Assembly (NCBI GenBank): GCA_016840825.1 | Contig: JAEORN010000267.1 | Span: 1 to 20,927, forward strand | Reading direction: 5' to 3' | Source: Candidatus Thorarchaeota archaeon | Lineage (GTDB): Archaea; Asgardarchaeota; Thorarchaeia; Thorarchaeales; Thorarchaeaceae | DNA: 20,927 bases | Part shown: positions 4,651 to 20,927 of the stretch, piece after piece | Layout: each line of letters opens with the position of its first letter | Position numbering within the stretch: position 1 is the stretch's first letter | Notes under the pieces: model-generated | Told to the model about the DNA's origin: nothing | Database searches by the model: none | The model's input: only the letters and a program-made list of their open reading frames with translations | Translations under genes and position numbers: made by a program

Positions 4651-5226
4651 ATGTACTACGGAGAACTTGTATGCTTACGCTCTTTGGAGCTGGCTGACTT
4701 TGACGACATCATGCAATTTCAGAACGATTGGAATCTCCGTAGATGGGCAGGTGTTCCATTACCGAAATCACATCGAGCTATAAAGGAGTGGCTTGAGATC
4801 GCATCTGGGGCACATCCTTGGCGTGATGGTACCATGTCCTTTGCAGTAGTTGATAAGAGAACTAACGAATTCATTGGAATCACGAGATTCTATGATGTGA
4901 AAAGTCCACATCATAGGGCTTCCCTTGGGCTTGCAATCCACAATCCAAACAACAGATCGAAAGGATATGGTACAGATACTACTAATGTCATGCTATGGAT
5001 TGGATTCAATGTGCTGGGGCTGCACAGCATGTATCTGGATACAATGGAGCATAATGAACATGCAATTCATGTAGCAGAAAAGACTGGTTTCAAGAGAGTA
5101 GGGATGTTTCGAGAAACCGAGTTCATAGATGGTGAATACAAAGGATTGGTATACTTTGACATTCTGAAAGATGAGTTCTTTGAGAGGTATCCACCAGGAG
5201 TTCCAATTGGATTGCCTGCCGAATAG
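4651..5226 (+). CDS. RimJ/RimL-type GNAT N-acetyltransferase
   Basis: The enzyme transfers acetyl from acetyl-CoA to an amine, commonly a protein N-terminus or a small molecule. The 191-residue product shows the RimJ/RimL layout: VCLRSLELADFDDIMQFQND at the N-terminus, FIGITRFYDV as the beta-4 strand (about residues 74-83), and LGLAIHNPNNRSKGYGTDTT as motif A, with the acetyl-CoA-binding R-x-K-G-Y-G-T turn (about 92-111). The motif-B region is NEHAIHVAEKTGFKRVGMFRE (about 130-150), with the typical N-x-x-A-x-x-x-x-E-K-x-GF pattern. All key elements are present. There is no Shine-Dalgarno; TTTTATC at 4621-4627 is 24-30 bases upstream, so the message may be leaderless. It converges with the tiny-gene operon at 5250. 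Confidence 0.9.
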   Translation: MYYGELVCLRSLELADFDDIMQFQNDWNLRRWAGVPLPKSHRAIKEWLEIASGAHPWRDGTMSFAVVDKRTNEFIGITRFYDVKSPHHRASLGLAIHNPNNRSKGYGTDTTNVMLWIGFNVLGLHSMYLDTMEHNEHAIHVAEKTGFKRVGMFRETEFIDGEYKGLVYFDILKDEFFERYPPGVPIGLPAE

Positions 5227-5247
5227 AGATGTAAAAAGAAGCGGCGT

Positions 5248-5271
5248 GCTTACGTTGCTTCCAACGCAAGC
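5248..5271 (-). terminator. Hairpin terminator of the tiny-gene operon
   Basis: On the minus strand GCTTGCGTTG pairs with CAACGTAAGC across a GAAG loop: ten pairs, one of them G-U. A T-rich stretch, CTTCTTTTTAC (about 5231-5242), follows within 10 bases. The hairpin covers the stop codon of the third tiny gene at 5250-5252. Confidence 0.7.
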
Positions 5272-5372
5272 ACATCATCAACTGTAAGTTCCTGTCCCTT
5301 GCGGGGCTTTGAGGACTGTACTGAGTGGAATTTCTTCTCCTCAGCCTTGAACCATGGGTAGGGATGTCTCAT
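5250..5372 (-). CDS. Tiny gene 3 of a three-gene mini-operon (40 residues)
   Basis: I recognise no family. The peptide begins MRHPYPWFKAEEKKFHSVQS, has a basic middle (SKPRKGQ) and ends in a probable short helix, LTVDDVLALEAT. There are no cysteines and no membrane segment. The ATG at 5372 is preceded by GGAGGT with 8 intervening bases, the best ribosome-binding site in the window. That site overlaps the stop of tiny gene 2, only 6 bases away and in the same frame. The stop codon lies inside the terminator hairpin. The ribosome site, tight spacing, promoter and terminator together argue that it is translated, despite its small size. Confidence 0.62.
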   Translation of the reverse strand: MRHPYPWFKAEEKKFHSVQSSKPRKGQELTVDDVLALEAT

Positions 5373-5378
5373 TGAGAT

Positions 5379-5459
5379 TTACCTCCGGAAGTAAGCTTGA
5401 GTGATAGCCTTGGTGGAGATCTGGGCCTTAGGAGCCTTGGATACTTTCGCGAGTGCCAT
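5379..5459 (-). CDS. Tiny gene 2 of the mini-operon (26 residues, basic)
   Basis: The reading is MALAKVSKAPKAQISTKAIT followed by QAYFRR: four lysines, two arginines and no acidic residue. GAGGT lies 7 bases before the ATG and overlaps the end of tiny gene 1, 5 bases upstream. It shares with tiny gene 1 the opening MALA, a central STKA and an AY pair before a basic end, which suggests an ancient duplication. The charge suggests binding to nucleic acid or the ribosome, but that is a guess. No known small ribosomal protein (for example L41e) matches. Confidence 0.6.
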   Translation of the reverse strand: MALAKVSKAPKAQISTKAITQAYFRR

Positions 5460-5464
5460 AGTGA

Positions 5465-5566
5465 TTACCTCACAACAGTTGCGTAAGCGTAGCCTACTGC
5501 TTTGGTCGATTGGACCTGTCTGTTCTTCTTCACAAATTCAGTTCGGGTATTAGTTGCTAGAGCCAT
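5465..5566 (-). CDS. Tiny gene 1 of the mini-operon (33 residues, basic)
   Basis: The reading begins MALATNTRTEFVKKNRQVQS and continues TKAVGYAYATVVR, with six basic and one acidic residue. It is the first gene after a strong TATA box at 5599-5606, which predicts a leader of only about 10 bases, so it may start almost leaderless; the only ribosome-site-like motif is a weak GTGA. The shared MALA and STKA-x-x-x-AY pattern links it to tiny gene 2. No homologue is known to me. Promoter position and coupling to the next gene are the main support for its being real. Confidence 0.6.
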   Translation of the reverse strand: MALATNTRTEFVKKNRQVQSTKAVGYAYATVVR

Positions 5567-5598
5567 GATATTTCACAAGGAATACCACTCAGATTTAG

Positions 5599-5606
5599 TA
5601 TATATA
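5599..5606 (-). promoter_or_regulatory. TATA box of the tiny-gene operon
   Basis: The minus-strand sequence GGTATATATACTAAA contains a near-perfect TATATATA core. The distance to the first ATG (5566) is about 35 bases, right for an archaeal promoter with a very short leader. Confidence 0.7.
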
Positions 5607-5624
5607 CCGAAGCCACAAGATAGG

Positions 5625-5652
5625 GTCACAGAATAAGGTCACAACATGTGAC
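5625..5652. promoter_or_regulatory. Palindromic operator plus extra half-site (GTCACA)
   Basis: GTCACAacaTGTGAC (5638-5652) is a perfect inverted repeat with a 3-base spacer. A third GTCACA at 5625-5630 repeats the left half 13 bases away. The set lies just upstream of the TATA box of the tiny-gene operon, where an activator would bind in archaea. It could also serve the plus-strand gene at 5796, about 145 bases away. The binding protein is unknown. Confidence 0.55.
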
Positions 5653-5795
5653 TATGAAATCCATAGAAATTAGTTAACATCAGATAAGTTCTCAATAGAT
5701 AGCACCGAGATCTAGCATTGCGTCTAATTAGTTCCAGATTATCCTCAATCGGTCATGTAATATGCAGAATTCTCTAACTCGAAGATGTGAAAACC
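5653..5795. promoter_or_regulatory. Intergenic region between the tiny-gene operon and the small membrane gene
   Basis: Apart from the operator to the left, this stretch shows only an A/T-rich TATA-like CATGTAATATGC (about 5755-5766). That element would start transcription close to 5785-5790, suiting the ATG at 5796 but not the upstream GTG at 5787. I see no gene or RNA structure in the rest. Confidence 0.4.
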
Positions 5796-7466: not shown

Positions 7467-8051
7467 GTGATACTATCGACTGATATGCAGAATCAGAAAG
7501 AGCTTAGAAAAGAAGCAGAAGAAATCATGGATAGATTGAATCTTATCGAACTTCTTAGTCGATATGGTGAAACGCGAGTAGTTGGAAGTGTTGTCCTGGA
7601 GCTCATTGTGAAGCTGGATTTGGATATTCATGTATATGTCACTAGTTATTCGTTGATAGATGCATTGAACATGGTCTCAAATGAACTGCTAGATTCTCCA
7701 AGGATTGATGAGATTAGAATCTCTGACTATCGACCAAGAGGCGTAAAGATTGGTATCGACAAGTGTATGGGGCCTTCAGGCAATTGGACAATCGATATCT
7801 GGCTAACCAATGATCGTTCGGCTACAGCATTCGATAGAACAGAAGAACTTCTTCCTGAACTCACCTCTGACAGGAAACAAATCATTCTATCCTTGAAGCG
7901 ATATTATCATTCTCTTGGAAGGCTACATGATGGAATAAGCTCTGTAATCTATAAAGCGGTTCTAAATGGCATAAGTGATGTAGATAGCTTTGAAGCAAGT
8001 TCAGAGTTTCTTGAATACCTAGAATCCGATGAGAGAAGGGACTCAAAATGA
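7467..8051 (+). CDS. Nucleotidyltransferase-superfamily-like protein
   Basis: The 194-residue product contains LIELLSRYGETRVVGSVVLE followed by LIVKLDLDIHVYV. This resembles the GS...D-x-D core of nucleotidyltransferase-fold proteins (about residues 26-58): a GS pair, then D-L-D-I-H about 13 residues later. NWTIDIWL (about 106-113) could supply the third acidic residue. The C-terminal half is helical. Similar proteins are widespread and mostly unnamed; enzymatic activity is unproven. GTG 7467 is the longest start, with a weak GAAGAG upstream; ATG 7485 is an alternative. Its stop overlaps the start of the peptidase-like gene by 4 bases (ATGA), so the two are surely in one operon. Confidence 0.6.
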   Translation: MILSTDMQNQKELRKEAEEIMDRLNLIELLSRYGETRVVGSVVLELIVKLDLDIHVYVTSYSLIDALNMVSNELLDSPRIDEIRISDYRPRGVKIGIDKCMGPSGNWTIDIWLTNDRSATAFDRTEELLPELTSDRKQIILSLKRYYHSLGRLHDGISSVIYKAVLNGISDVDSFEASSEFLEYLESDERRDSK

Positions 8052-9091
8052 CAGTGAAATTCAACAGATCAGGTACGGAATTATTCCTAGAAAAATTGGA
8101 GATCTTGGCACAGGGGAACGCATTATCTCAACAGGATATCAACGCGATTATGGGAAATCGTGTTGTGGATATCTGGATTAAAGCATATGAGTCGTGGATA
8201 CCAGATGCAAGAGCTGATTTTGAGAGAATTCTAGCTAACCTACAAGCAGAATCACCAGAGAATCTTAGTGACTGGGGGACTCATATAGACAATGGTATAC
8301 GATCTGCGATTGAGAACTTGGAAAAAATGCAGGCAAGCCTTGCCCTTCTTTCGGAGTTCAACTGGCCACAAGCAGAGTGGTATGCCCTCAAGTTTCTTCC
8401 AGAAAGCACTCAGATAAATGTGGAGGTATTTGCTACAGTTGACGGTTTCAATGGTGGTATGTTTAGACCTGGGAAGGTCTTCATCTCTCTCCTCTATATG
8501 AGTCCTTCAATGCTTGATGCCAGCAATTTCAGTCATGAGTTTCATCATAGCGGTTTCGATTTCTGGTGGAAGAAGACTCCATTCTATGTTAGATACAATG
8601 AACAGAAAGATACAGCGGAATACTGGGCTCTCAGGCTATTCGAGTATCTAATTAGTGAAGGGTTGGCGAATGCCTTCTGTTCTCCCACAGCGATTGAGAA
8701 GGTGGATGGAGATTCAGAGTGGATACTTGCGCATAATGAGATTATACAGGAGTACGAAGATCGATGGGATGAGTTCCATTCTATGTTGGATGAACTCATC
8801 CGTAGAATCGCTTCAGGAAACATTGTGAATATCAAAGAGGAATACGATGGATTTACGATGGATATGTCAGGGAGAGGACATCCAATAGGTCATTTCTTCT
8901 CTGGACGGATGATTAGGGAAATGGATAGATCTCGGATGGTACAACGTGAGCAAATCATCAAGCTTGTGAGAGAGCCATTCTCGTTCTTCAACCTCTACAA
9001 TACGGCTGCAAAGGAGAGGGGATTGAAGGAGTTCTCAAAGGACCTCCTTCAGAATCTAGATTCACTTATAGCGAAATTGGCAGATAGGTAG
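8048..9091 (+). CDS. Putative zinc metallopeptidase with HEFHH motif
   Basis: The 347-residue product has a gluzincin-like metal site: H163-EFHH-167 in the helix NFSHEFHHSGF, and E204 in LISEGLAN 37 residues later. That arrangement suits two histidines and a glutamate binding zinc, with E164 as the catalytic base. The segment before it (VFATVDGFNGGMF, then KVFISL) is the edge-strand region typical of DUF5700/DUF2268-like predicted peptidases. The N-terminal 110 residues and the C-terminal part are helical. It has no signal peptide or membrane segment, so it is probably cytoplasmic. ATG 8048 has AAGGG 7 bases upstream and overlaps the previous gene's stop. Substrate unknown; peptidase activity is inferred from the motif alone. 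Confidence 0.72.
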   Translation: MTVKFNRSGTELFLEKLEILAQGNALSQQDINAIMGNRVVDIWIKAYESWIPDARADFERILANLQAESPENLSDWGTHIDNGIRSAIENLEKMQASLALLSEFNWPQAEWYALKFLPESTQINVEVFATVDGFNGGMFRPGKVFISLLYMSPSMLDASNFSHEFHHSGFDFWWKKTPFYVRYNEQKDTAEYWALRLFEYLISEGLANAFCSPTAIEKVDGDSEWILAHNEIIQEYEDRWDEFHSMLDELIRRIASGNIVNIKEEYDGFTMDMSGRGHPIGHFFSGRMIREMDRSRMVQREQIIKLVREPFSFFNLYNTAAKERGLKEFSKDLLQNLDSLIAKLADR

Positions 9092-9795: not shown

Positions 9796-10164
9796 ATGAG
9801 TTCAGAGTCTAAGAAGGCACTCGAGGAATTCGAGCGCTGGAGTAAGGAAGTGAAGCGAGGGGCGGCCTCATTGGCTATCCTTGCGGTCCTTGAGGACGAA
9901 GAAGCTTATGGTTATGAGATTGTGAATCAGCTGAGCTACAGAGTATCGTTCTTGCAGCTTGAGCAAGGAACAGTCTACCCCCTACTGAGACGGCTAGAAC
10001 AGAGAGGTCTCTTGAACAGCCGATGGGATCAGAGCGATCCTGCAAAACCAAAGAAGTACTATCGTCTGACCTACGACGGTAAGAGAGCTTTGGACATGAT
10101 GATGGAAACATGGTCTGTGCTATCAGAAGAAATGAACAAACTAAGTAAAGGAGTTGAAGCATAA
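9796..10164 (+). CDS. PadR-family transcriptional regulator
   Basis: A winged-helix regulator of 122 residues. The diagnostic stretch is GAASLAILAVLEDEEAYGYEIVNQLS (about residues 22-47, with the A-Y-G-Y-E-I motif), then LEQGTVYPLLRRLEQRGLL (about 56-74, the recognition helix with the T-V-Y-P-x-L-x-R-L-E pattern), and PKKYYRLTYDGKRAL (about 85-99, the wing). A C-terminal helix for dimerisation follows. GGTGGTGA lies 3 bases before the ATG. The stop is followed at once by the ATG of the HAAS-domain protein (TAAATG), so the two are coupled. Palindromes around the promoter suggest it represses its own operon. The signal is unknown. Confidence 0.94.
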   Translation: MSSESKKALEEFERWSKEVKRGAASLAILAVLEDEEAYGYEIVNQLSYRVSFLQLEQGTVYPLLRRLEQRGLLNSRWDQSDPAKPKKYYRLTYDGKRALDMMMETWSVLSEEMNKLSKGVEA

Positions 10165-11256
10165 ATGGCAGACAAGCCTATCGATTTGATTGAGAAATAT
10201 CTGGAACGTGTGCAAGTATACCTACCACTTGGTAGCGATGAGATACTTGCTGAAATAAGGACCCACCTTATTGAAGAAGCTGAGAACCTTGGGGGTGGTC
10301 ATTTGACCCATGGCTCAGCTATGCTAGCTGTTGAGCGGTTTGGTGATCCGAAAGATGCAGCCAATGAATGGGCGGGAACCGGCAAGAAGGTCGGACCTGT
10401 ACCAGCAGAATATACTACTCCCTTGGTGAAGATAGCATTGACCCTGATAGCTCTTGGTGCGGTCTTCATAGCTGGAGCAGCAATCGTGAATGCTGCAGTT
10501 CCCGGTTTCTGGGAGATGGTCGACTTTGGCTGGAGCATTGGAATGATGGTAATAATGTCACTTCTCTATGCTTTCATGATCATTGGAGGACTATCATATC
10601 TGGACAGCAGAGGCAAGCCTCCCACTGAGAAGACCACATTGGAAAGCGTTCTGGGTGTCGCAACTGGCGCATTCAAGCCAAAGCCCAGGTCTGATGCTGG
10701 CGCGGGATTCTTCTTTGGAATAATCTTTGCAGCCTTCATATTCTCTCCATTCGTCCAGAACATCCTCACAACAGAGGCATTATTCTTCGTAAACCTCTTT
10801 GCGACCCTCCTATTTGCGGAAGCCATTGTGAACCTGATGTTCTTCCTGTTCGGTGAGAACAATGTGAACCTCTCATTCGAGGCCATCGTTGGAGTTGCTT
10901 GGATCCTTCTCTCCATGTTTCTGATCAATCTGGCATTCCCATTGACAGGATTCTACAACAACACAAATGGTGTTTGGTCCTTCATGTCCTTCGAGGAACT
11001 ATTTCAACTAGTTCCTGAATTGGAGATATTCCTACCACTCAATCTAATCTGGGTCTTCGTGGTATTCATCATCGTCATAACCAACCTCTGGACGGTTCTC
11101 ATGGCATTGATGAAGATTCCAATGTACCGCCAAGCTGGCAAGAGCTGGTGGTGGCAAGGTGAATGGGGTCAGAAGCGCTGGAAGAAGTACCGAAAGAAGG
11201 CCAATCGACCAGCTGAAACAGTCAGAGAGGATGGTTACTCTTCTTCTAACTACTAA
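10165..11256 (+). CDS. HAAS/DUF1700-like domain membrane protein, PadR partner
   Basis: The N-terminal 70 residues match the HAAS-type helical domain commonly encoded next to PadR regulators: LIEKYLERVQVYLPLGSDEI, then LAEIRTHLIEEAENLG, and AVERFGDPKDAANEW, the F-G-D/S-P-x-x-x-A signature. About six membrane helices follow (roughly residues 88-112, 120-145, 180-202, 206-229, 238-258 and 288-318). A basic tail ends it, starting KSWWWQGEWGQKRWKKYRKK. PadR-HAAS pairs are thought to link membrane state to transcription, with the membrane protein as the regulated or sensing partner; that function is not shown here. Zero spacing from padR and a terminator 11 bases after the stop define a two-gene operon. 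Confidence 0.85.
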   Translation: MADKPIDLIEKYLERVQVYLPLGSDEILAEIRTHLIEEAENLGGGHLTHGSAMLAVERFGDPKDAANEWAGTGKKVGPVPAEYTTPLVKIALTLIALGAVFIAGAAIVNAAVPGFWEMVDFGWSIGMMVIMSLLYAFMIIGGLSYLDSRGKPPTEKTTLESVLGVATGAFKPKPRSDAGAGFFFGIIFAAFIFSPFVQNILTTEALFFVNLFATLLFAEAIVNLMFFLFGENNVNLSFEAIVGVAWILLSMFLINLAFPLTGFYNNTNGVWSFMSFEELFQLVPELEIFLPLNLIWVFVVFIIVITNLWTVLMALMKIPMYRQAGKSWWWQGEWGQKRWKKYRKKANRPAETVREDGYSSSNY

Positions 11257-19234: not shown

Positions 19235-20209
19235 CTACGACTTCAAGGTTGTAATAGGTCTTGATTGAAGTACCACTATCTGATCACTCATAATGCTCCA
19301 TTCAATATCTTGAGGACCTCCCATCTTATCCTCAATCTCAATTCCTAGCTCAACAAGTTCCCTCAAATTATCATTTGATAGCACAAAGGTCTCTCTCTTT
19401 TCGAGCAGAGTATCTTTTCTCAATGTGCATCCATTTCCTTGGACAAAGGTCAACTCTTTGCTTCCAAGGATTCTGCTAATTGGCACCTTTGTTTCTCTAT
19501 CCACGACATAAGTATCAGGGACCACTTTTCCTCCTACTAGTGCTTCTCCAAGTCCCCATGTCGCTTCGATTAGCATTTGATCCCTACTGTTATCTATCAC
19601 ATTAGCAGTGAATAGGACTCCAGATATCTCTGCATCAATCATCTCTTGAACGACCACGCCCATAGAGATACTGCTCATTTGTATTCCCATGGTCTTCAGA
19701 TAGATTGCTGATTGTGGCGAGATAGTAGATTGCCAGACTCTTTTCACTGAGGCAAGAAGATCGTCAATTTCTTGGATGCATAGATAGGTTTCCGCTTGAC
19801 CCGCAAATGAGAACTCTCCACTATCCTCAATTGAAGCGGATGACCGAACCGCGAATCCGTGTTTAGAATGAGTATTGCTCTGAAGTTTGGAGAACATCTC
19901 TCTCAATTCTTGAACCATCTCTGCTGGGAGCTCAGAATGTAGAATGACAGCTTGTAGGTTGGTAGCAATCTCAAGGATATCTTCGAACTCATCTGTATTA
20001 TCTAACTTTAGCATCAACTCAGTTGCTTCAGGGATACTATCAAGCATCTGGCGATAGTAATATCCTGAGATAGCAAAACCTCTGGGAATGTGAAATCCGT
20101 GAGTATGAAGCTTTGAGAGATTTGCAGCCTTACCTCCATAAATCTGGATTCCATTTGGATGAATTTCGTTAAGATTAAGAATATATCTGGTGGACACTTC
20201 TCTCACCAT
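19235..20209 (-). CDS. PEP synthase/PPDK-type ATP-grasp domain, stand-alone subunit
   Basis: This is the nucleotide-binding part of the pyruvate-phosphate dikinase/PEP synthase family, which uses ATP to phosphorylate a histidine on a swivelling domain. Key segments in order: YGGKAANLSKL, AVRSSASIEDSGEFSFAGQAET (the R-S-S and F-A-G-Q motifs), VVVQEMIDAEISGVLFTANV, WGLGEALVGGKVVPD, and the closing DIEWSI and LQSRPITTL. Full-length enzymes are about 750-900 residues; this protein of about 324 stops at the end of the ATP-grasp domain and lacks the histidine domain and the pyruvate-binding barrel. The histidine domain is on the gene just upstream. I chose ATG 20209, with GTGAT 8 bases upstream; it starts one base after the previous stop (TAGTATG). 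The acceptor substrate is unknown. Confidence 0.9.
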   Translation of the reverse strand: MVREVSTRYILNLNEIHPNGIQIYGGKAANLSKLHTHGFHIPRGFAISGYYYRQMLDSIPEATELMLKLDNTDEFEDILEIATNLQAVILHSELPAEMVQELREMFSKLQSNTHSKHGFAVRSSASIEDSGEFSFAGQAETYLCIQEIDDLLASVKRVWQSTISPQSAIYLKTMGIQMSSISMGVVVQEMIDAEISGVLFTANVIDNSRDQMLIEATWGLGEALVGGKVVPDTYVVDRETKVPISRILGSKELTFVQGNGCTLRKDTLLEKRETFVLSNDNLRELVELGIEIEDKMGGPQDIEWSIMSDQIVVLQSRPITTLKS

Positions 20210-20210
20210 A

Positions 20211-20561
20211 CTATTCAATCACATATAGTGCACCCTGTACACCATCTTCGTGTTTTATCATGACTCGTTTTCTATCTAATGCAGATGGGTCATGGATATT
20301 AATCCCCATAAGTGCCGGAATCTCAAATTCTCTAGTCACAATTGCCAAATGGGACCCTAAAGCACCGGTCTGACATACCACACCTGCTAGTTTGGGGAGA
20401 ACAGGAGCAAGAAAAGTAGTGCCTGCATCATCAACAAGGACGATTTTTCCATCAGGTCCTTCTTTGAGGAGCTGAATCACTTCCTGCACGGATGTGATGT
20501 ATCTTATTTCGCCCTCGGTATCAAGTTTCAGGGAGATTAGTCCTTCTGCGATTCTCTCCAT
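20211..20561 (-). CDS. PEP-utilizing swivelling phosphohistidine domain, stand-alone subunit
   Basis: The 116-residue product corresponds to the mobile histidine domain of PEP synthase-like enzymes, which shuttles phosphate between active sites. The landmark is GVVCQTGALGSHLAIVTREF, matching the family G-x-x-x-S-H-x-A-I-V-A-R pattern; the predicted phosphorylated residue is H71. EIPALMG follows, and the GKIVLVDD segment is the usual lead-in strand. A longer reading back to 20744 exists. I prefer ATG 20561 because AAGGAG lies 9-10 bases before it, a TATA-like TTAAATT at about 20603-20609 fits its promoter, and the extra 61 residues lack family resemblance and overlap the divergent gene. It precedes the ATP-grasp gene by one base. 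Together they form two of the three usual parts of a dikinase. Confidence 0.85.
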   Translation of the reverse strand: MERIAEGLISLKLDTEGEIRYITSVQEVIQLLKEGPDGKIVLVDDAGTTFLAPVLPKLAGVVCQTGALGSHLAIVTREFEIPALMGINIHDPSALDRKRVMIKHEDGVQGALYVIE

Positions 20562-20708
20562 AGGTTGAAGCTCCTTGGTTTTCAAGCTGACCTGCAATGC
20601 CCAATTTAAGCATGCTGACGATTGAATCAAATGTGGTTCTAGGTAGCCCCAATATTTACATAATAGGTTGTTCAAGCCATAGAGGATTCTGTGAAGGTGA
20701 TTAGTATA
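20562..20708. promoter_or_regulatory. Divergent promoter region of the split dikinase and the right-edge gene
   Basis: On the minus strand CTTAAATTGG (about 20601-20610) serves as a TATA-like box for ATG 20561. On the plus strand AATATTTACATAATA (about 20652-20667) may serve the gene at 20709, followed by GAAGGTGATT before its ATG. Assignment is inference. Confidence 0.45.
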
Positions 20709-20927
20709 ATGGAAGTGAGTGAGGTCAATAAATATCTCCGTCATGTTTCGAATGTCTTTAGCGATATTCTCGCAGAACGAGGTCTGTTGGAAAGTAAACT
20801 CTTTCCAGTCAATGAGTACATTAGCGTTTCATGTTTCCATACCTATGACTATCTCTACCCCCTCATGAAGCTCGTATGGGATCGGATCACTCCGGAAGAA
20901 TTAGCTAAACAAAGCAAGCAATTACTA
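20709..20927 (+). CDS. Unknown protein, N-terminal fragment at the right edge
   Basis: An open frame of 73 codons runs from ATG 20709 to the end of the window without a stop. GGTGAT, a strong ribosome-binding site, ends 7 bases upstream of the ATG. The translation starts MEVSEVNKYLRHVSNVFSDI, then LAERGLLESKLFPVNEYI, a Y/F/H-rich stretch (SVSCFHTYDYLYPL) and VWDRITPEELAKQSKQ. It looks helical and soluble, and I recognise no family. It is divergent from the split dikinase genes and may share regulation with them. The good codon pattern and ribosome site make it more likely to be real than the opposite-strand reading that overlaps it at 20709-20744. Confidence 0.6.
   Translation, partial: MEVSEVNKYLRHVSNVFSDILAERGLLESKLFPVNEYISVSCFHTYDYLYPLMKLVWDRITPEELAKQSKQLL

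What the first reader, a model, noticed from the sequence alone, without database searches (positions are those of the whole stretch)
5250..5652. Hidden mini-operon of three tiny genes with full expression signals
Three consecutive minus-strand frames of 33, 26 and 40 codons (5465-5566, 5379-5459, 5250-5372) sit 5-6 bases apart in a stretch otherwise empty of genes. The second and third have canonical ribosome-binding sites (GAGGT, GGAGGT) overlapping the previous stop. A strong TATA box precedes them and a ten-pair hairpin with a T-tract ends them. I know no matching family. Seen: frames, sites, promoter, terminator. Inferred: that all three peptides are made and act together.
Basis: partly seen in the sequence, partly recalled or inferred. 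Interest (0 to 1): 0.75.

Follow-up and report, generated by a model that had tools for sequence, protein, structure and literature searches.

The report
Thorarchaeal microprotein operon with shared promoter
Three neighbouring genes so small that they are easily overlooked turn out to be one copy of a family of tiny-protein operons that nearly every genome searched from one order of Asgard archaea carries, often several times, and that share a single distinctive on-switch with pumps resembling drug exporters.

Summary
They form a genuine conserved operon: 33-aa (A), 26-aa (B) and 40-aa (C) microproteins; A and B are paralogues. In-frame purifying selection is clear for A (pN/pS 0.39) and B (0.30), weaker for C (0.56); shifted frames give 0.95-1.32.

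The cassette is one copy of a multi-locus family. A-type peptides occur in 43 of 227 Asgard genomes, all within one 47-genome order. A 55-nt promoter pattern matches 43 of those 47 genomes and 0 of the other 180.

Among 88 promoter sites in fetched loci, 73 start with a scored A/B-type peptide; 32 of those continue into MFS exporter genes (one family Mef/EntS-like), and 13 further sites precede an MFS gene with no scored peptide. The window copy is peptide-only: its terminator overlaps the last codons of C and faces a convergent acetyltransferase.

Best reading: trans-acting microproteins made with exporters in one lineage-specific regulon. Operon, coding and shared promoter are well supported; the peptides' action is unknown. 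No match in Pfam, PHROGs, PADLOC or Rfam, nor for A and C in NCBIfam.

The parts
5638..5654 (-). Palindromic operator TAGTCACA-TGT-TGTGAC (GTCACATGTTGTGAC at 5652-5638)
   Evidence: Read; listed as an inverted repeat; same site and spacing upstream of A in most of the loci printed; pattern built from these promoters found in 43 of 47 genomes of the order and 0 of 180 other Asgard genomes
5611..5630 (-). Second conserved half-site TGTGACCC (5630-5623) and conserved GTGGCT block (5616-5611)
   Evidence: Fixed spacing in the promoter listing and in the pattern searches
5598..5606 (-). TATA box TATATATAC; its distance to the ATG of A is nearly constant between loci
   Evidence: A begins at +84 to +86 from the promoter start in most scored sites. 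Transcription start about 10 nt upstream of A is inferred from archaeal promoter geometry, not shown
5465..5566 (-). Microprotein A, 33 aa, MALATN...STKAVGYAYATVVR, cationic (+5 by residue count)
   Evidence: family in 43 of 227 Asgard genomes; pN/pS 0.39, CI 0.31-0.47, shifted frames 1.18 and 1.30
5467..5471 (-). SD-like GAGGT, overlapping the stop of A, for B
   Evidence: among 86 scored micro-ORF pairs less than 20 nt apart, 67 have an SD 5-mer within 15 nt of the second start
5379..5459 (-). Microprotein B, 26 aa, MALAK...STKAITQAYFRR, paralogue of A, cationic (+6 by residue count)
   Evidence: A/B profile comparison probability 96.5; pN/pS 0.30, CI 0.16-0.41
5381..5386 (-). SD GGAGGT, within the Arg-Arg-stop codons of B, for C
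5250..5372 (-). Microprotein C, 40 aa, variable N-terminus, C-terminal DVLALEAT
   Evidence: V-L-A-L-E-A-T in all 40 rows of the profile-selected alignment A8; pN/pS 0.56, CI 0.36-0.77 on only 6 disjoint pairs
5233..5274 (-). Terminator hairpin (5274-5245) overlapping the last codons and stop of C, then a T-rich tract (5240-5233)
   Evidence: over 57 distinct 3' ends chosen by a peptide motif, 88% of cells paired against a shuffle maximum of 85%, and 31 double-change cells against a shuffle maximum of 18
4651..5226 (+). Convergent GNAT acetyltransferase; no downstream gene for the cassette to control in cis
   Evidence: PF13302; GNAT genes also lie near cassettes at other loci

Best explanation
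This is a stand-alone microprotein operon of a regulon specific to one order of Thorarchaeota. A regulator, not identified here, is inferred to bind GTCACA-N3-TGTGAC and the TGTGACCC half-site next to a TATA box. The transcript starts about 10 nt before A (inferred). Ribosomes make A; B and C are then initiated from SD sites built into the stop regions of the preceding gene. Transcription ends at a hairpin embedded in the 3' end of C. The same promoter module drives other copies of A/B(/C) and operons in which A/B-type micro-ORFs lead into MFS exporter genes. The most likely role is that A and B (cationic, probably helical paralogues) and C (acidic on average in its family, though about +1 in the window copy, with one conserved C-terminal helix) act in trans as small accessory factors in the response that switches on MFS efflux, with the peptide-only copies raising peptide dose. 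Shown by sequence: coding selection, conserved operon, shared promoter, co-operonic MFS genes, lineage restriction. Inferred: regulator, start site, coupling, function in trans. Confidence in the operon and regulon about 0.95; in the functional step about 0.4.
For: Coding. A is constrained alike in MFS operons (pN/pS 0.43, 12 disjoint pairs) and elsewhere (0.40, 18 disjoint pairs). Cassette recurs at unlinked loci. Promoter: 137 sites in 43 of 47 genomes of the order with 0 for the reversed pattern (137 is my sum of its table), and 0 of 180 other Asgard genomes. Of 88 promoter sites in fetched loci, 73 have a scored A/B-type peptide at +80 to +95: 24 with C, 18 with MFS1, 14 with MFS2, 17 with none of these. 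MFS1 is PF07690; MFS2 is PF05977, with TIGR00900, Mef(B), Mef(A) and EntS models below their cut-offs. C-type cassettes are followed by a convergent gene in 18 of 25 cases, so these peptides cannot act only as leaders in cis. Promoter+A sequences cluster by genome more than chance: 36 changes against a shuffled mean of 55.2, 0 of 200 as low. Mean net charge A +4.7, B +5.7, C -2.2. C-terminal helix 31-38 in C, pLDDT 66; helix 4-32 in A, single sequence, pLDDT 79.
Against: No expression, ribosome-profiling or mass-spectrometry data. No regulator identified. C coding evidence rests on few independent pairs and its third-position excess is not significant (P = 0.14). C was scored in none of the 32 peptide+MFS sites, so the three need not act as one complex; the window's own C is not acidic. 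Six of 25 C-type cassettes have a same-strand gene downstream. The 88 sites include the same locus in several genomes, so they are not independent. Genome clustering is uneven: of the 15 genomes listed, G001, G006, G008 and G011 (support 93, 78, 90, 48) are one side of a branch, while G002, G007, G010 and G028 show none; locus identity also structures that tree (quick search, 193 columns).
Confidence: 0.6

Rival explanations
1. Cis-acting leader relay. The micro-ORF chains are sensors of ribosome function that set expression of the downstream MFS exporter, as leader peptides do for bacterial drug-efflux genes; peptide-only copies are derived or decoy versions.
For: In MFS2 operons the MFS start lies 5 nt after the last scored micro-ORF in 9 of 14 cases, and chains of micro-ORFs lead into the exporter. 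MFS2 is Mef-like. Mef(E) in streptococci is controlled by a leader peptide and a terminator (PMC4335068, outline and abstract seen).
Against: 18 of 25 C-type cassettes are followed by a convergent gene, including the window's, so nothing lies in cis there. A is under the same constraint with or without an MFS gene. A is conserved at both ends, whereas stalling leaders are expected to be constrained mainly towards the stall site (general knowledge). 13 MFS1 genes follow a promoter with no scored peptide (11, plus L228 and L239 read).
Confidence: 0.2
2. Export cargo. A and B are cationic signalling or antimicrobial peptides and the co-regulated MFS proteins export them or give self-protection; C would be a neutralising or processing partner.
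For: Multi-copy cationic, probably helical peptides co-operonic with transporters; C acidic on average; an S41 peptidase gene under the same promoter in G017.
Against: No maturation enzyme was found near the window copy among the proteins scanned; MFS proteins are unusual carriers for 30-residue peptides (general knowledge); the S41 case is a single locus; the window's C is not acidic; homogenised, constrained peptides are not what rapidly diversifying antimicrobials usually show (general knowledge).
Confidence: 0.15
3. A non-coding RNA or dispersed DNA repeat in which the three reading frames are incidental.
For: The promoter and the 3' hairpin are conserved at nucleotide level; copies are dispersed in a genome.
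Against: pN/pS well below 1 only in the named frames. Length variation inside the ORFs preserves both ends in frame. SD/start architecture recurs. No credible Rfam match. Copies occupy corresponding positions in different genomes, such as downstream of polX.
Confidence: 0.03

Closest known systems
Leader-peptide-controlled efflux operons (Mef(E)L-mef(E)/mel in streptococci, PMC4335068)
   Same: Short ORFs with ribosome-binding sites upstream of an MFS exporter in the MFS-type operons; a terminator hairpin in the system; MFS2 scores against Mef models below cut-off.
   Different: Here several paralogous micro-ORFs occur behind a conserved operator; the window-type copies have no downstream gene; the peptides recur at many loci and are conserved at both ends.
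Translationally coupled serial genes in archaea (PMC10666635)
   Same: Very short intergenic distances: 4-8 nt in 80 of 86 scored micro-ORF pairs, counting only pairs less than 20 nt apart. That paper's abstract reports coupling at overlaps or very short distances, almost abolished at about 20 nt.
   Different: Most coupled pairs in that abstract overlap by 4 or 1 nt; here SD sites sit in the preceding stop region, so independent initiation is equally possible.
Archaeal micro-proteins such as the zinc-finger micro-proteins of Haloferax volcanii (PMC6562870, search listing only)
   Same: Very small archaeal proteins.
   Different: A, B and C of the window contain no cysteine, occur in chains, and share a promoter with exporters.

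Membership tests
Leader-peptide / attenuator-controlled efflux operon | A regulated gene lies downstream in cis on the same transcript | tested here: not met
   Window cassette ends in a terminator facing a convergent GNAT gene; 18 of 25 C-type cassettes are followed by a convergent gene
Leader-peptide / attenuator-controlled efflux operon | Short ORF(s) precede an efflux gene | tested here: met
   Only for the sister operons: 32 of 88 promoter sites have peptide plus MFS
Leader-peptide / attenuator-controlled efflux operon | Ribosome stalling on the leader triggers expression | not testable with these tools
   Needs ribosome profiling or reporter assays
Known protein or anti-phage defence family | Match to a curated family model | tested here: not met
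   A, B and C: no match above cut-off in Pfam (one sub-threshold match for A, E 0.056) and none at E<=0.1 in PHROGs or PADLOC; A and C: none in NCBIfam at E<=0.001 (B not scanned)
RiPP precursor cluster | Maturation enzymes encoded nearby | tested here: inconclusive
   None among 17 other window proteins scanned with Pfam, but several window ORFs were not scanned; at other loci flanking ORFs were clustered and only 8 cluster representatives plus 2 genes of L163 scanned
Mobile element / MITE-like repeat | Terminal inverted repeats with target-site duplication | not tested
   The cassette ends, an operator palindrome and a terminator hairpin, are not inverted copies of each other by eye; target-site duplications were not examined
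Mobile element / MITE-like repeat | Insertion sites differ between relatives | tested here: inconclusive
   Many copies sit at corresponding positions in different genomes (polX, smc, GNAT neighbourhoods), but not all sites were compared

The most novel reading that the evidence does not exclude
Thorarchaeota possess a lineage-specific regulon of microproteins, encoded in chained micro-ORF cassettes that are homogenised between loci by gene conversion and co-produced with Mef-like MFS exporters. They would be a new class of trans-acting stress effectors, or of exported peptide signals with their pumps, for which no counterpart was found in the libraries searched here.
Probability: 0.35. Interest if true: 0.9.

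Novelty: categorically new. Interest (0 to 1): 0.78.

Why it matters
Genes of 26-33 codons are easily missed by annotation; of the three only C could be searched in the large protein database (its minimum query of 40 aa excluded A), where it is at best a hypothetical protein. This finding shows that such a set is carried, often at several loci, by 43 of 47 genomes of an Asgard order. It supplies a 55-nt promoter signature for finding an Asgard regulon and its regulator, and direct targets for peptide detection in enrichment cultures. It also links the microproteins to efflux pumps, which suggests a condition (toxic or drug-like compounds) under which to look for them. If the peptides act in trans, they would be a new kind of small-protein response in the archaeal lineage related to eukaryotes.

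Tried and rejected
Rfam scan of the window gave nothing; with permissive filters 5200-5700 gave one match at E 0.92, far below that family's cut-off. PDB profile search with A gave one chance match to ribosomal protein S11 (E 0.11); B and C were not searched there. Scans of public contigs with the first three C sequences found no confirmed relative in genome contigs or viral contigs; whole-genome searches later did find the family, so the genome contigs negative reflects the stringency of that search. Genome contigs was then scanned with a ferredoxin-like protein of the window to place it among Thorarchaeota. AlphaFold2 models of A (single sequence) and C (40 rows) are too short or uncertain for a fold search, and none was run.

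Considered and dropped: a mobile repeat (copies sit at corresponding genomic positions); a leader or attenuator for the window copy (no cis target); toxin-antitoxin membership (no PADLOC match at E<=0.1, and no functional evidence). The X region of MFS operons looks coding (pN/pS 0.53, 8 disjoint pairs), but it also contains internal GGTCAC/TGTGACC repeats, which could create that pattern, so X is not claimed as a gene.

Selection caveats. Micro-ORF pairs 20 nt or more apart were left out before the 86 gaps and SD sites were counted. The pN/pS sets keep only ORFs above score cut-offs (67 A, 27 B, 17 C) and pairs of 70-97% identity. The hairpin ends were chosen by a peptide motif, which fixes part of the stem. 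C-profile hits: 30 of 227 genomes; the one outside the order (G137) is a 16-residue match inside a 376-codon frame and is taken as chance. A8 used 39 of the 45 proteins; six of 59-69 aa were left out before counting.

Full report
1. Observation. The three frames exist as described. On the minus strand they are A (5566-5465, 33 aa), B (5459-5379, 26 aa) and C (5372-5250, 40 aa), separated by 5 and 6 nt. GAGGT and GGAGGT overlap the stops of A and B. A TATA-like box lies at 5606-5598. A 13-pair hairpin with a T-rich tail overlaps the last codons and stop of C. The convergent GNAT gene (4651-5226, PF13302) ends a few bases beyond.

2. Origin. No genome is held for the window. Its ferredoxin-like protein is up to 85% identical to proteins of Thorarchaeota MAGs, so the window is Thorarchaeal. 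The nearest promoter+A sequences, 86% identical for the closer one, come from G004, the genome holding L006 (Zod_maxbin.0292).

3. The cassette is a family. C has two homologues of exactly 40 aa, one in an annotated Thorarchaeota MAG. A three-row profile of C matched 9 of 11 Thorarchaeal genomes at E<=1, some more than once. In 10 of the 16 loci so matched (L029-L044) the DNA shows A/B-type micro-ORFs directly upstream, and these 10 were read in full. In 227 Asgard genomes the A profile matched 43 at E<=0.01, all among the 47 genomes of one order, with 1 to 12 matches per genome. The C profile matched 30 genomes at E<=0.05, 29 of them in that order and one taken as chance. Across 5.8 billion proteins the C profile found 45 proteins; the three whose source names an organism are Thorarchaeota.

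4. Coding. On disjoint pairs of sequences, pN/pS is 0.39 for A (29 pairs, CI 0.31-0.47), 0.30 for B (9 pairs, CI 0.16-0.41) and 0.56 for C (6 pairs, CI 0.36-0.77). The same sequences in shifted frames give 1.18 and 1.30, 1.32 and 1.22, and 0.99 and 0.95. The third-codon-position excess is strong for A (P = 7e-14) and B (P = 1e-4) but not significant for C (P = 0.14). A and B are paralogues (profile comparison probability 96.5), sharing MALA at the N-terminus and ST-x-A-[IL]-x-x-AY-x-R at the C-terminus in most members. The Arg-Arg-stop codons of B (AGG AGG TAA in many copies) are also the SD of C, and the codons for VLALEAT are also the terminator. So two conserved peptide ends carry overlapping nucleic-acid constraints, which should temper the reading of their invariance.

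5. Terminator. Over 57 distinct C 3' ends, chosen by a peptide motif, 88% of cells of the 11-pair stem are paired (shuffle mean 83%, maximum 85%), with 31 double-change cells (shuffle mean 9, maximum 18). At the pair joining the Leu wobble base to the stop codon, C pairs with G in 45 of 46 ends, and T pairs with A in 4 and with G in 4 of 8. Related sequences inflate such counts. C-type cassettes are followed by a convergent gene in 18 of 25 cases, a same-strand gene in 6 and a contig end in 1.

6. Promoter. About 90 nt upstream of A are very similar across most loci printed: TAGTCACA-N3-TGTGACT, TGTGACCC, GTGGCT, TATATATAC, then CTTGTGAAAYATC-ATG. Ten A-type genes in that listing lack this module and lie in other contexts; two more are cut by contig ends. 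A 55-nt pattern built from the module matched 43 of 47 genomes of the order (137 sites by my sum) with no match for the reversed pattern, and none of the other 180 Asgard genomes.

7. Regulon. In fetched loci, 88 promoter sites were classified: 24 peptide+C, 18 peptide+MFS1, 14 peptide+MFS2, 17 peptide only, 11 MFS1 without scored peptide, 1 C without a scored first peptide, 3 none. Two of those 3 (L228, L239) read as MFS1. MFS1 belongs to PF07690. MFS2 belongs to PF05977 and scores below cut-off against TIGR00900, Mef(B), Mef(A) and EntS. In MFS2 operons the MFS start lies 5 nt after the last scored micro-ORF in 9 of 14 cases. In G017, which has a 3.16-Mb contig, one of two tandem promoters drives a peptide plus an S41 peptidase (PF03572) and the other a peptide plus an MFS1.

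8. Concerted evolution. In a quick tree of 66 promoter+A sequences, genome labels need 36 changes against a shuffled mean of 55.2 (0 of 200 as low). G001, whose four copies sit in four different neighbourhoods, is one side of a branch (support 93), as are G006 (78), G008 (90) and G011 (48, weak). Others among the 15 listed genomes cluster partly, and G002, G007, G010 and G028 not at all. Locus labels are also few (14 changes). The simplest reading is stable positions plus gene conversion between copies in some genomes.

9. Mechanism. The peptide-only copies with terminators and convergent neighbours argue that A, B and C act in trans. The exporters under the same switch point to a response to toxic or drug-like compounds. 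A and B are cationic (mean +4.7 over 110 and +5.7 over 62 scored ORFs); C averages -2.2 over 18, range -5 to +1, and the window's C, at about +1 by residue count, is at the top of that range. Models give a helix for A (single sequence) and only a C-terminal helix for C. How the peptides act is not known; small accessory factors, leader relay and export cargo are weighed above.

10. Known systems. Leader peptides control mef(E) in streptococci by attenuation (PMC4335068, outline and abstract), but the window copy lacks a cis target. Very short intergenic distances favour translational coupling in archaea (PMC10666635, outline and abstract); here 80 of 86 gaps are 4-8 nt among scored pairs less than 20 nt apart. 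No match to A, B or C passed a cut-off in Pfam, PHROGs or PADLOC, nor for A and C in NCBIfam. Paper searches (listings only, apart from the two outlines) found no description of this family in the held library, which lacks most subscription journals and all bioRxiv preprints.

Noticed in passing
L151, L169, L199, L212, L216, L206, L192, L201, L214, L153, L215, L193 (roughly +240 to +420 from the promoter start): In these MFS-type operons the stretch between A and A' (or, in L153, after B) holds GGTCAC repeats and TGTGACC or GTGACC; in most it is followed by another TGTGA...ATG leader, as if a second, diverged copy of the promoter lay inside the operon.
   Followed up: partly
L221-L226, L227, L228, L229, L239, L240: A second class of the promoter (often GTCACA...GCGACC...TGTGTCCC...GTGCCT...TTATATAC) directly precedes an MFS1 gene with no scored micro-ORFs.
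   Followed up: partly
L148, L163, L185, L190, L197, L210: A-type micro-ORFs (some with B and C) with a different upstream region lie between a divergent gene and convergent methyltransferase-like genes (by eye); in L163 the next gene on is a TrmB-family regulator (PF01978). A candidate place to look for the regulator.
   Followed up: partly
L159, L180, L202, L211: Single A-like peptides without the promoter module, upstream of conserved larger genes.
   Followed up: no
L233: Two tandem promoter modules about 1.7 kb apart in a 3.16-Mb contig, one driving a peptide plus S41 peptidase gene and the other a peptide plus MFS1.
   Followed up: partly
window 19235-20744 (-): PPDK_N-type ATP-binding domain and PEP-utilising mobile domain encoded by two separate overlapping ORFs, with the mobile domain upstream.
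   Followed up: no
window 8048-9091 (+), 9796-11256 (+): A DUF5700 putative zinc peptidase, and a PadR regulator followed directly by a HAAS-domain protein.
   Followed up: no
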